A DNA stretch of 64,000 nt from Streptomyces sp. SCSIO 75703 (GTDB lineage: Bacteria > Actinomycetota > Actinomycetes > Streptomycetales > Streptomycetaceae): assembly GCF_036607905.1 (NCBI RefSeq), contig NZ_CP144555.1, forward strand, positions 2,666,001 to 2,730,000. The letters run 5' to 3'. The first letter of the stretch is position 1; every line of letters begins with the position of its first letter. Shown piece after piece: positions 13,046-39,367 of the stretch. The notes beneath the pieces were generated by a model, which saw only the letters and a list, made by a program, of their open reading frames with translations, did no database searches and was not told where the DNA came from. The position numbers were made by a program, and so were the translations under genes.

Positions 13046-14494
13046 TCAGCCGAGGTCGATCTCGGGGTAGAGCGGGAAGCCCGCCACGAGGTCGGAGGCG
13101 CGCCGCGAGATCTCGTCCGCGACCTTGGCGTCCAGCACGTGCTGGGCCTTGGACGGGGCGCCCTTGGCGGTGGTGCCGGGCTCGGTGGCGGTCAGGACGC
13201 GGTCGATGAGGCCGGCCACCTCGTCCATCTCGGCGGTGCCGAGGCCCCGGGTGGTCAGCGCGGGGGTGCCGACGCGGATGCCGGAGGTGTACCAGGCGCC
13301 GTTGGGGTCGGCGGGGATGGAGTTGCGGTTGGTGACGATGCCGGCGTCGAGGAGGGCGGCCTCGGCCTGGCGGCCGGTGAGGCCGTGGGAGGTGGCGACG
13401 TCGATGAGGTTGAGGTGGTTGTCGCTGCCGCCGGTGACGAGGGTGGCGCCGCGCCGCATCAGGCCCTCGGCGAGGGCGCGGGAGTTGTCGACGACGCGCC
13501 GGGCGTAGTCGCGGAAGGCGGGCTGCCGGGCCTCGGCGAGGGCGACGGCCTTGGCGGCCATGACGTGCGGGAGGGGGCCGCCGAGGACCATCGGGCAGCC
13601 GCGGTCGACCTGGTCCTTGAGGGAGTCGTCGCAGAGCACCATGCCGCCGCGCGGGCCGCGCAGCGACTTGTGGGTGGTGGTGGTGACGATCGGGGCGTGC
13701 GGGACGGGGTCGAAGTCGCCGGTGAGGACCTTGCCGGCGACGAGGCCCGCGAAGTGCGCCATGTCGACCATGAGCGTGGCGCCGACCTCGTCGGCGATCT
13801 CGCGCATGATCCGGAAGTTGACCAGGCGCGGGTAGGCGGAGTACCCGGCGACGAGGATCAGCGGCTTGAACTCGCGGGCGGCGGTGCGCAGCGCCGCGTA
13901 GTCGATCAGGCCGGTGGCGGGGTCGGTGCCGTAGGAGCGCTGGTCGAACATCTTGCCGGAGATGTTCGGGCGGAAGCCGTGGGTGAGGTGGCCGCCGGCG
14001 TCCAGGGACATGCCGAGCATGCGCTGGTTGCCGAAGGCGGCGCGCAGTTCGGCCCAGTCGGCGTCGGTGAGGTCGTTGATCTGGCGGGCGCCGGCCTTCT
14101 CCAGGAAGGGGGCCTCGACCCGGTCGGCGAGGACGGCCCAGAAGGCGACCAGGTTGGCGTCGATGCCGGAGTGCGGCTGGACGTAGGCGTGCCGGGCGCC
14201 GAAGAGTTCGCGGGCGTGCTCGGCGGCGAGGGACTCGACGGTGTCGACGTTGCGGCAGCCGGCGTAGAAGCGGCGGCCGACGGTGCCCTCGGCGTACTTG
14301 TCGCTGAGCCAGTTGCCCATGGCGAGCAGGGTGGCCGGGGAGGCGTAGTTCTCGGATGCGATCAGCTTGAGCATCTCGCGCTGGTCGGCGACCTCCTGGC
14401 CGATGGCGTCGGCGACGCGCGGTTCGACCGAGCGGATGACGTCGAGGGCGGCGCGGTAGGCGGTGGAAGCGGTGGACAGGGGCTCCGCTGACAT
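13046..14494 (-). CDS. glyA: Serine hydroxymethyltransferase
   Basis: A 482-residue PLP enzyme that interconverts serine and glycine and makes 5,10-methylene-tetrahydrofolate. The PLP lysine is K276 in [14 protein letters not shown]. Other landmarks are [22 protein letters not shown] and VDMAHFAGL. At 482 residues it is longer than the usual 420, because of an insertion around residues 127-157 ([20 protein letters not shown]), as in the longer actinobacterial GlyA. The ATG at 14494 has a GGAGG Shine-Dalgarno seven bases upstream. A ZTP riboswitch occupies its leader, so expression should rise when 10-formyl-tetrahydrofolate is short. Confidence 0.96.
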
Positions 14495-14530
14495 GGGGAC
14501 CTCCGGACGGTGGGTCGGCATTGTCGGTAC

Positions 14531-14622
14531 GGCCCAGGCGCACGGCACTCGTGCCGGGCCCGCGGGTCCCGGGGGCCGCTTCCCGATGGTCGGTCCCATC
14601 CCAGCACGCCAGTCACGGCCCA
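14531..14622 (-). ncRNA. ZTP (pfl) riboswitch upstream of glyA
   Basis: Read on the minus strand, the glyA leader contains the conserved 5' pfl block GUGACUGGCG, the following UGGGAUGGGACC stem-loop region, CGGGAAGCGGCCC, a GGCACGAGUGCC hairpin and the 3' pseudoknot block GCGCCUGGGCC, in the right order and spacing. The pfl RNA binds ZTP/ZMP, purine intermediates that build up when formyl-tetrahydrofolate is lacking. It usually controls glyA, folD, purH or fhs genes. The 3' end lies about 36 bases before the glyA ATG, so control could be at translation or termination. Confidence 0.87.
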
Positions 14623-14726
14623 CGGCCACCCTACCGGGGCCCCGGTTCGCCCGGCCCTTGGCGTCCACCATGCGGGCCGGGCCACGGGGGTTCCGGGCGG
14701 GGACACGGGGGGCCGGGCGGGCCGGG

Positions 14727-25680: not shown

Positions 25681-26137
25681 GCAGCGTGTCCGACAGGAAC
25701 GGGATCTCCAGCCACGGATCGGGCTGCGCCATCAGCGCCAGCAGCGAGATCGCGCCGCCGAGCACGCCGTAGGTGGCGATGTCGGTGAAGCGCGAGCGCA
25801 CCGCGAGCATCCCGACGTCCGGCAGCGTCCACCGCAGCGCGGCCCCCGCCAGCAGCGCGATGCCGACGAACAGCGTGCCGAGGCGGAAGACGTCCAGCGC
25901 GGTGAGGAACAGGCCGAGTCCGACGACGATCAGCACCGAGAGGATCGGCCACTGCCGGGCCGGCGCCGGGGCGCCCCCGGGCGCGGCACGTCCGCCGCCC
26001 TCGGGGCGGGCCGTGTCCCGGGTGAAGAGGGGGAAGCGCCGGGTGCCGCGCCGCGGGCGGCCGTCGGTGCCGGGTGCGGCGACCGGGTCCTTGACCGTGA
26101 CGTCCTCGGGGCGTTCGGCGTTCTCGTCAGCCGGCAC
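25661..26137 (-). CDS. DUF3017 membrane protein
   Basis: A 158-residue protein with a charged, Pro/Ala-rich N-terminal 60 residues and about three membrane helices ([53 protein letters not shown]). It matches the actinobacterial DUF3017 family, of unknown function, which is usually found directly after folD. The GTG at 26137 overlaps the folD stop by 11 bp, which argues for co-translation. Its last codons are repeated in tandem downstream. Confidence 0.85.
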
Positions 26138-26981
26138 TGCGCTCCGCCGCCTCGACCACGTTGACGAGAAGCTGGGCGCGGGTCATCGGGCCGACGCCGC
26201 CCGGGTTCGGGGAGATCCAGGCGGCGACCTCGGCCACGTCCGGGTGGACGTCGCCGAGGATCTTGCCCTCGGCGTTGCGCGAGACGCCGACGTCGAGCAC
26301 GGCCGCGCCCGGCTTGACGTCCTCGGCGCGGATCAGGTGCGGGGAGCCGGCCGCGGCGACCACGATGTCGGCCCGCTTGAGGTGGGCGGAGAGGTCGCGG
26401 GTGCCGGTGTGGCACTGGGTGACGGTGGCGTTCTCGCTGCGCCGGGTCAGCAGCAGCGGCATCGGCCGGCCGATGGTGACGCCGCGGCCGACGACGACGA
26501 CCTCGGCGCCCTTGATCTCCACGCCGTGGCGGCGCAGCAGGGTGATGATGCCGTGAGGGGTGCAGGGCAGCGGCGCCGGCTCGTTGAGCACCAGGCGGCC
26601 CAGGTTCATCGGGTGCAGGCCGTCCGCGTCCTTGTCCGGGTCCATCAGCTCCAGGACGCGGTTCTCGTCGATGCCCTTGGGCAGCGGGAGCTGGACGATG
26701 TAGCCGGTGCACTCCGGGTCCTCGTTCAGCTCGCGGACCACGGCCTCGATCTCCTCCTGCGTCGCCGTGGCCGGCAGTTCCCGCTGGATGGAGGCGATGC
26801 CCACCTGGGCGCAGTCGCGGTGCTTGCCCGCGACGTACTTCTGGCTGCCGGGATCGTCGCCGACGAGGATCGTGCCGAGGCCGGGCGTGACGCCCCTCTC
26901 CTTCAGCGCCGCCACGCGGGCGGTCAGTTCGGACTTGATCGCGGCTGCCGTGGCCTTGCCATCGAGAATCTGGGCGGTCAT
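26127..26981 (-). CDS. folD: Methylene-tetrahydrofolate dehydrogenase/cyclohydrolase
   Basis: A 284-residue bifunctional enzyme that converts 5,10-methylene- to 10-formyl-tetrahydrofolate, supplying PurN and PurH. Signatures are the active-site Lys segment [27 protein letters not shown] (QLPLP), and the NADP site [17 protein letters not shown]; the family norm GRSxxVGxP is slightly altered here. The ATG at 26981 is chosen because [13 protein letters not shown] is the family start. No ZTP riboswitch was found in its leader, unlike glyA. Confidence 0.96.
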
Positions 26982-37178: not shown

Positions 37179-38737
<1,559 letters not shown>

Positions 38738-38741
<4 letters not shown>

Positions 38742-39367
38742 TGGATAACTACCTTTCGTCCCTCGATGCGATAGCCGTTGCGGGCGAGCCGCCCCACGAC
38801 ATCGACGAGCAGTCTTCGCTCGACTTCCTTGATGCGCTCGTGCAGAGCGCTCTCGTCGTCCTCGTCCCGCACCTCGACCACGCCCTGCGCGATGATCGGC
38901 CCGGTGTCGACGCCGTCGTCGACGAAGTGGACGGTGCACCCGGTGACCCGGGCGCCGTACGCCAGCGCGTCCCGCACCCCGTGCGCCCCGGGGAAACTGG
39001 GCAGGAGCGCGGGGTGGGTGTTGACGAACCGGCCGCCGAACAGCGCGAGGAACTCCTTCCCCACGATCCGCATGAACCCGGCCGAGACCACGAGGTCCGG
39101 CTCGTGGGCGGCGACGGCCTCGGCGAGGGCCGCGTCCCACTCCTGGCGGGTGGCGTAGTCACGGACCCGGCGCACGAAGGTGGGCACTCCGGCGCGCTCG
39201 GCGCGCGCGAGCCCCTCGATGCCGTCGCGGTCCGCGCCGACGGCGACGACCTCGGCCCCGTACGCCTCCGCGCCGGCGGCGGCGATCTCGTCGAGGAGCG
39301 CCTGCAGATTGCTGCCGGTTCCGGAGACCAGCACGACGAGGCGCTTGGCCACGGGCTTGGCGGCCAC
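38738..39367 (-). CDS. purN: Phosphoribosylglycinamide formyltransferase
   Basis: A 209-residue folate-dependent GAR transformylase of purine synthesis. Landmarks are [13 protein letters not shown] for substrate phosphate binding, [27 protein letters not shown] with the catalytic Asn and His, and the late [14 protein letters not shown] with the Asp. It is the first gene of the purN-purH operon, and its stop overlaps the purH start by 4 bp. A promoter-like -10/-35 pair lies 83-110 bp upstream. No ZTP riboswitch consensus was found in the leader. Confidence 0.96.

What the first reader, a model, noticed from the sequence alone, without database searches (positions are those of the whole stretch)
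14531..14622. ZTP riboswitch controls glyA, while folD and purNH leaders lack it
The pfl consensus (GUGACUGGCG ... GCGCCUGGGC) is in the glyA leader only. Three other one-carbon/purine loci in the same window (folD, purN, purH) do not show it. Control of formyl-folate supply by ZMP/ZTP may thus be concentrated at serine hydroxymethyltransferase.
Basis: partly seen in the sequence, partly recalled or inferred. Interest (0 to 1): 0.5.

Follow-up and report, generated by a model that had tools for sequence, protein, structure and literature searches.

The report
ZTP riboswitch before Streptomyces glyA
A known kind of RNA sensor for a purine-pathway alarm signal sits in front of one serine hydroxymethyltransferase gene in a Streptomyces-like genome, and in related genomes the same sensor sits on extra, patchily present copies of folate genes rather than on the standard copies.

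Summary
Rfam's ZMP-ZTP model matches window 14626-14525 (minus strand) at 39.7 bits, cut-off 39. A model from 32 relatives, without the window's copy, scores it 57.4 bits; the next place in the window scores 19.7. Upstream of folD and purN nothing exceeds 6.5 bits. It is the only hit found in the genome.

It precedes one of three serine hydroxymethyltransferase genes. It is an ordinary ZTP/pfl member, and a single element before glyA is already published for Cupriavidus (PMC10882993).

Relatives change the interpretation. Of 150 genus genomes, all 71 with this glyA have a ZTP hit and none of the 24 without a hit has it. Of 110 hits classified, 41 precede this glyA, 17 a second glyA type, 51 an accessory folD, 1 an AICAR transformylase; none precedes housekeeping folD or purNH. 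ZTP control thus follows patchy paralogues rather than SHMT as such.

ZMP binding and switching were not tested. Shine-Dalgarno sequestration is supported for folD2 leaders but not for glyA.

The parts
14525..14626 (-). ZMP/ZTP (pfl) riboswitch aptamer, RF01750
   Evidence: Rfam 39.7 bits; leave-one-out genus model 57.4 bits; covariation in relatives
14570..14624 (-). P1/P2 domain with GACUGGCG (J1/2, pseudoknot strand GGCG) and GGGAAGCG
   Evidence: cmscan alignment; coordinates checked; invariant columns
14549..14569 (-). P1-P3 linker; length varies widely among relatives
   Evidence: leader listing; core spacing 59-151 nt in 55 distinct glyA-A leaders
14530..14548 (-). P3 with loop holding the pseudoknot partner CGCC
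   Evidence: alignment; pseudoknot pairs complementary in 33 of 33 aligned sequences but invariant
14499..14504 (-). Shine-Dalgarno GGAGGU of glyA
   Evidence: sequence; CGUCCGGAGG recurs in many glyA-A leaders
13046..14494 (-). glyA, serine hydroxymethyltransferase, 482 aa
   Evidence: NF010094 E=4.7e-257; PF00464
26127..26978 (-). housekeeping folD, no ZTP element in its leader (comparison gene)
   Evidence: NF010789; scan with filters off, at most 5.8 bits
38738..39367 (-). purN, first gene of purNH, no ZTP element in its leader (comparison gene)
   Evidence: TIGR00639; scan with filters off, at most 6.5 bits upstream
37179..38741 (-). purH, overlapping the end of purN (comparison gene; start inferred)
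   Evidence: TIGR00355; sequence

Best explanation
A ZTP-class riboswitch in the leader of a serine hydroxymethyltransferase mRNA. When 10-formyl-tetrahydrofolate runs short, ZMP/ZTP builds up, binds the aptamer, stabilises the J1/2-P3 pseudoknot and raises glyA expression, so that more one-carbon units are loaded from serine. Shown here: the aptamer sequence and fold, its covariation in relatives, its linkage to this gene, and its absence from the folD and purNH leaders. Inferred from the known class: ligand and ON direction. Inferred from the lack of an intrinsic terminator: control at translation initiation (about two in three; see the rival). In related folD2 leaders a likely switch is visible: the aptamer strand CCUGGGC is complementary to GCYCAGG at the Shine-Dalgarno site. 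For this glyA leader the switch is not resolved. In the genus the element marks patchy paralogues (two glyA types, folD2, rarely an AICAR transformylase), while the near-universal folD and purNH go without.
For: Rfam hit over threshold. Leave-one-out model 57.4 bits versus 19.7 for the next place. In 33 aligned sequences 98.8% of cells pair, 8 pairs change on both sides, 0 of 500 shuffles reach the covariation score. All 71 of 150 genomes with this glyA (E<=1e-150) have a ZTP hit (E<=0.1) somewhere in the genome; 0 of the 24 without a hit have the gene (Fisher p=3e-8, not corrected for relatedness). Leaders were read for 57 of the 71: all but one hold the core, one of these with a single-base change. 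110 of 110 classified hits precede glyA-A, glyA-B, folD2 or an AICAR transformylase. Housekeeping folD and purN occur in 149 of 150 genomes each; the 30 best loci of each show no ZTP element. No intrinsic terminator near the leader. folD2: 31 of 41 distinct Shine-Dalgarno regions pair with the aptamer strand better than shuffles. [quoted passage not shown]
Against: The Rfam score only just clears its cut-off. By eye the linker can form a competing GC-rich hairpin with the 5' strand of P3. In folding models, Shine-Dalgarno access in the window leader barely changes between free and bound states (0.41 to 0.45); across 55 glyA-A leaders it rises by more than 0.1 in 25 and falls by more than 0.1 in 11. 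Pairing of the Shine-Dalgarno region with the aptamer strand is no better than shuffles in 28 distinct glyA-A regions (mean z -0.11, 0 of 28 with p<0.05). One relative's glyA-A leader lacks the 5' part of the core, and one genome has folD2 without the element. The pseudoknot never varies, so covariation cannot test it. No expression or binding data.
Confidence: 0.9

Rival explanations
1. A variant of the best explanation: a real ZTP riboswitch whose output is transcriptional (Rho-dependent or by pausing) rather than at the Shine-Dalgarno site.
For: Pairing with the Shine-Dalgarno region is not above shuffles for glyA-A leaders; accessibility modelling is inconclusive.
Against: No intrinsic terminator; folD2 leaders of the genus show Shine-Dalgarno pairing with the aptamer strand above shuffles; only 20 nt lie between the aptamer match and the Shine-Dalgarno site.
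Confidence: 0.3
2. A decayed aptamer that keeps the sequence core by descent but no longer switches.
For: Score near the Rfam cut-off, non-standard pairs in P1 and outer P3, long GC-rich linker.
Against: All 29 columns that are invariant in 32 relatives stay invariant when the window copy is added; leave-one-out score 57.4 bits; long linkers recur in other glyA-A leaders.
Confidence: 0.07
3. Chance match of a GC-rich leader to a GC-rich model.
For: 78% GC and an Rfam E-value of only 0.005.
Against: Leave-one-out score nearly three times that of any other place in a GC-rich 64-kb window; co-occurrence with the gene across 150 genomes; two-sided covariation.
Confidence: 0.01

Closest known systems
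ZMP/ZTP riboswitch (pfl motif, RF01750; gene list in PMC2864571)
   Same: Core, P1/P2/P3, pseudoknot complementarity, position in a glyA leader
   Different: Long variable linker; no intrinsic terminator; in this genus on patchy paralogues
pfl-glyA of Cupriavidus metallidurans (PMC10882993, passages)
   Same: Single ZTP element in the genome, before glyA
   Different: There tested with a reporter and trimethoprim; other phylum; here the genome has three SHMT genes
Thermosinus carboxydivorans ZMP riboswitch (PMC7337938, passages)
   Same: P3 strand shared between the ligand-bound fold and the expression platform, as proposed here for folD2
   Different: Transcriptional terminator there; none found here
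Glycine riboswitches of Streptomyces gcv genes (PMC8079986, PMC8780764, passages)
   Same: RNA control of one-carbon genes in the same genus
   Different: Other ligand and genes; the words ZMP, ZTP, pfl and RF01750 do not occur in the main text of either inventory

Membership tests
ZMP/ZTP riboswitch RF01750 | Covariance-model score at or above the gathering cut-off | tested here: met
   39.7 versus 39 bits
ZMP/ZTP riboswitch RF01750 | Conserved core GACUGGCG and CGCCUGGG with the bases between | tested here: met
   29 columns invariant in 32 relatives remain so with the window copy
ZMP/ZTP riboswitch RF01750 | P1 and P2 helices with covariation | tested here: met
   6 of 10 pairs in P1 and 2 of 4 in P2 change on both sides among relatives
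ZMP/ZTP riboswitch RF01750 | J1/2-P3 pseudoknot GGCG/CGCC | tested here: inconclusive
   complementary in 33 of 33 but never varies
ZMP/ZTP riboswitch RF01750 | Upstream of a purine or one-carbon gene | tested here: met
   30 nt between the aptamer match and the glyA start codon
ZMP/ZTP riboswitch RF01750 | Binds ZMP/ZTP | not testable with these tools
   needs in-line probing or calorimetry
ZMP/ZTP riboswitch RF01750 | Ligand-dependent expression change through an expression platform | tested here: inconclusive
   no terminator; Shine-Dalgarno pairing not above shuffles for glyA-A, above for folD2

The most novel reading that the evidence does not exclude
In Streptomyces the ZTP alarm does not act through riboswitches on the housekeeping formyl-folate and purine genes at all. 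It acts on a dispensable relief module of paralogues (glyA-A or glyA-B, folD2, rarely a stand-alone AICAR transformylase), each usually gained or lost together with its riboswitch, so that the standard folD-purNH flux stays insulated from the alarm.
Probability: 0.45. Interest if true: 0.5.

Novelty: new member of a known kind. Interest (0 to 1): 0.3.

Why it matters
The riboswitch itself is ordinary, but the comparison gives a testable rule: an RNA alarm sensor placed on spare gene copies rather than standard ones. It suggests one reason for keeping several copies of primary-metabolism genes. It also shows that inserts and long linkers make the Rfam model score some members weakly or miss them, so inventories of this class may undercount.

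Tried and rejected
A ZTP element before folD or purNH in the window: rejected (core pairs). A ZTP element at the other two SHMT genes or the second FolD-like gene of the genome: none above chance in the stretches held. Pairing of the glyA Shine-Dalgarno region with the P2 loop, noticed by eye: not kept, because leaders with GGAGGCCGUC lack the complement while P2 is unchanged. Sequestration of the glyA Shine-Dalgarno site by the P3 strand: not above shuffles. Accessibility modelling: inconclusive; glyA-B access fell slightly, 0.29 to 0.27 in 9 leaders. One literature search returned noise because folD matched 'fold'.

Limits. The genome scans scored 150 of 2510 and 150 of 21972 first-look candidates, so a weak second element could be missed; the 150-genome scan used stricter filters. 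The four unlisted genomes without a hit were identified by elimination. 26 genomes have a ZTP hit but neither glyA-A nor folD2 at my thresholds; not all of their hits were classified. The 110 classified hits are the 30 strongest plus 80 others chosen by hand down its list; the other listed hits and those not printed were not classified by me, apart from one before an AICAR transformylase. R1 includes the window copy; R2 does not. Rows dropped: two glyA-A loci without the exact core were listed apart (one single-base variant, one lacking the 5' part); skipped leaders in which my patterns found no core or no Shine-Dalgarno site, and duplicates. One locus holds a run of N and served for its leader only.

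Full report
What is there. The minus strand at 14626-14525 matches the Rfam ZMP-ZTP aptamer over its whole length, 39.7 bits with a cut-off of 39. Thirty nucleotides separate the match from the start codon (14494-14492) of a 482-aa serine hydroxymethyltransferase gene, glyA. No other Rfam family reaches its cut-off in the window. The genome is 6.89 Mb in one contig; one ZTP hit was found with the Rfam model and one with my genus model, each after scoring 150 first-look candidates.

Is it more than chance. I aligned 33 aptamers from the genus, the window's included, and built a model. Without the window copy (32 sequences) the window scores 57.4 bits and the next place 19.7. In the 33 sequences 98.8% of cells pair; P1 has six and P2 two pairs with changes on both sides; 0 of 500 shuffles reach the covariation score. 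The pseudoknot is complementary in all 33 but never varies, so it is consistent but untested.

folD and purNH. folD is at 26127-26978, purN at 38738-39367, and purH overlaps the end of purN. With filters off the best score is 5.8 bits around the folD leader and 6.5 bits upstream of purN. In the genus, folD (E<=1e-90) and purN (E<=1e-50) occur in 149 of 150 genomes each. I scanned the 30 best loci of each; the best score was 16.6 bits, downstream of the gene, so no ZTP element is seen.

What the relatives show. Of 150 genus genomes 126 have a ZTP hit at E<=0.1, 112 over the cut-off. I classified the gene behind 110 hits: 41 this glyA (type A), 17 a second glyA type (type B, about 42% identical in the two read in full), 51 an accessory folD (folD2), 1 an AICAR transformylase. 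None precedes the housekeeping folD or purNH. Type-A glyA is found in 71 of 150 genomes (E<=1e-150) and folD2 in 58 (E<=1e-100). All 71 glyA-A genomes have a ZTP hit; none of the 24 without a hit has glyA-A. Of 58 folD2 genomes 57 have a hit; the exception has folD2 without the element. I read the glyA-A leaders of 57 of the 71 genomes: 56 keep the core, one of them with a single-base change, and one lacks the 5' part. An AICAR transformylase like that of L049 is in 3 of 150 genomes (E<=1e-40); two of the three have the element, and the third, only 52% identical, does not. The Fisher tests ignore relatedness.

Weak and missed members. Of the 20 listed genomes without an Rfam hit, 2 have glyA-B, and both carry the core with inserts; my model finds one of them clearly. 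Core spacing runs from 59 to 151 nt in 55 distinct glyA-A leaders and from 53 to 85 nt in 55 folD2 leaders. Four glyA-A and four glyA-B leaders carry extra sequence between the pseudoknot strand and P2; in L127 it folds into a near-perfect hairpin of about 30 pairs. Two of the four glyA-A cases still clear the Rfam cut-off, so inserts weaken the score without always losing the hit.

Beyond the genus. Among the 80 best named relatives of this GlyA kept by the search, 51 have the element directly upstream by my model: Streptomyces, Kitasatospora, Actinacidiphila, Micromonospora, Catellatospora, Actinoplanes, Blastococcus, Klenkia and others. The 29 without are Nocardioides, Marmoricola, propionibacteria, mycobacteria and some MAGs; Rfam at its cut-off, run on 20 of those 29, found no ZTP element.

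How it probably works. The class member of Thermosinus is an ON switch whose P3 strand is shared with a terminator (PMC7337938, passages). Here no intrinsic terminator is seen, so I favour translation. In folD2 leaders the strand CCUGGGC is complementary to GCYCAGG at the Shine-Dalgarno site; 31 of 41 distinct regions pair better than flank-shuffled controls at p<0.05, mean z -2.0. The same test gives mean z -0.1 and 0 of 28 for glyA-A, mean z -0.9 and 1 of 14 for glyA-B, and p=0.15 for the single AICAR transformylase leader. Accessibility modelling gives 0.31 to 0.38 for 55 glyA-A leaders (up by more than 0.1 in 25, down in 11), 0.29 to 0.27 for 9 glyA-B leaders, and 0.36 to 0.52 for 54 folD2 leaders (up in 29, down in 4). 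So the translational mechanism is reasonable for folD2 and open for the window's glyA.

Place in the literature. [quoted passage not shown] A review summarises ZTP as the alarm for formyl-folate shortage (PMC7266159, passages). A genome with one pfl element, before glyA, and induction of the fusion by trimethoprim but not by a sulfonamide is PMC10882993 (passages). Searches for ZTP riboswitch with Streptomyces (5 papers), with glyA (4 papers) and with Actinobacteria (0 papers) listed no paper that, by title and start of abstract, describes this paralogue pattern. I did not read the five papers; the library lacks most subscription papers, among them Kim et al. 2015 (seen only as a reference). 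Two Streptomyces inventories report glycine riboswitches at gcv genes and do not contain the words ZMP, ZTP, pfl or RF01750 in their main text (PMC8079986, PMC8780764, passages and term counts); whether those strains carry the element was not tested.

Verdict.

Noticed in passing
L033 (own genome, about 482.6-486.5 kb): A cluster of an MTHFR-domain protein, a second FolD-like protein and a formyltetrahydrofolate deformylase (PurU), without a ZTP element: a possible one-carbon disposal route.
   Followed up: partly
L111, L112, L126, L127 (glyA-A) and L267-L270 (glyA-B): Insertions between the pseudoknot strand and P2 of the ZTP aptamer, in L127 a near-perfect hairpin of about 30 pairs.
   Followed up: partly
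L049, L272, L275, L276: Stand-alone AICAR transformylase (best match PRK07106, below its curated cut-off for the part held) behind a ZTP element in two genomes; the substrate of such an enzyme is ZMP itself.
   Followed up: partly
L274: An accessory folD2 with no ZTP element in its leader; its genome is the only one of 58 folD2 genomes without a ZTP hit.
   Followed up: partly
L150: A glyA-A leader that keeps the 3' part of the aptamer but lacks GUGACUGGCG; decay or assembly error.
   Followed up: no
L035/L037 and L036/L038 (own genome): Two further SHMT genes, one behind frames that look by eye like gcvT and gcvH, neither with a ZTP element. No glycine riboswitch was found in these stretches, which may not reach the gcvT leader.
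   Followed up: partly
L244, L248, L254, L257, L258, L260: ASdes sRNA family matches about 380-480 nt downstream of glyA in Mycobacteriaceae loci.
   Followed up: no
L207: Record titled Nocardia otitidiscaviarum NBRC 14405 encodes a GlyA 89% identical to the window's with a ZTP element, as in Streptomyces; possible mislabelled record or transfer.
   Followed up: no
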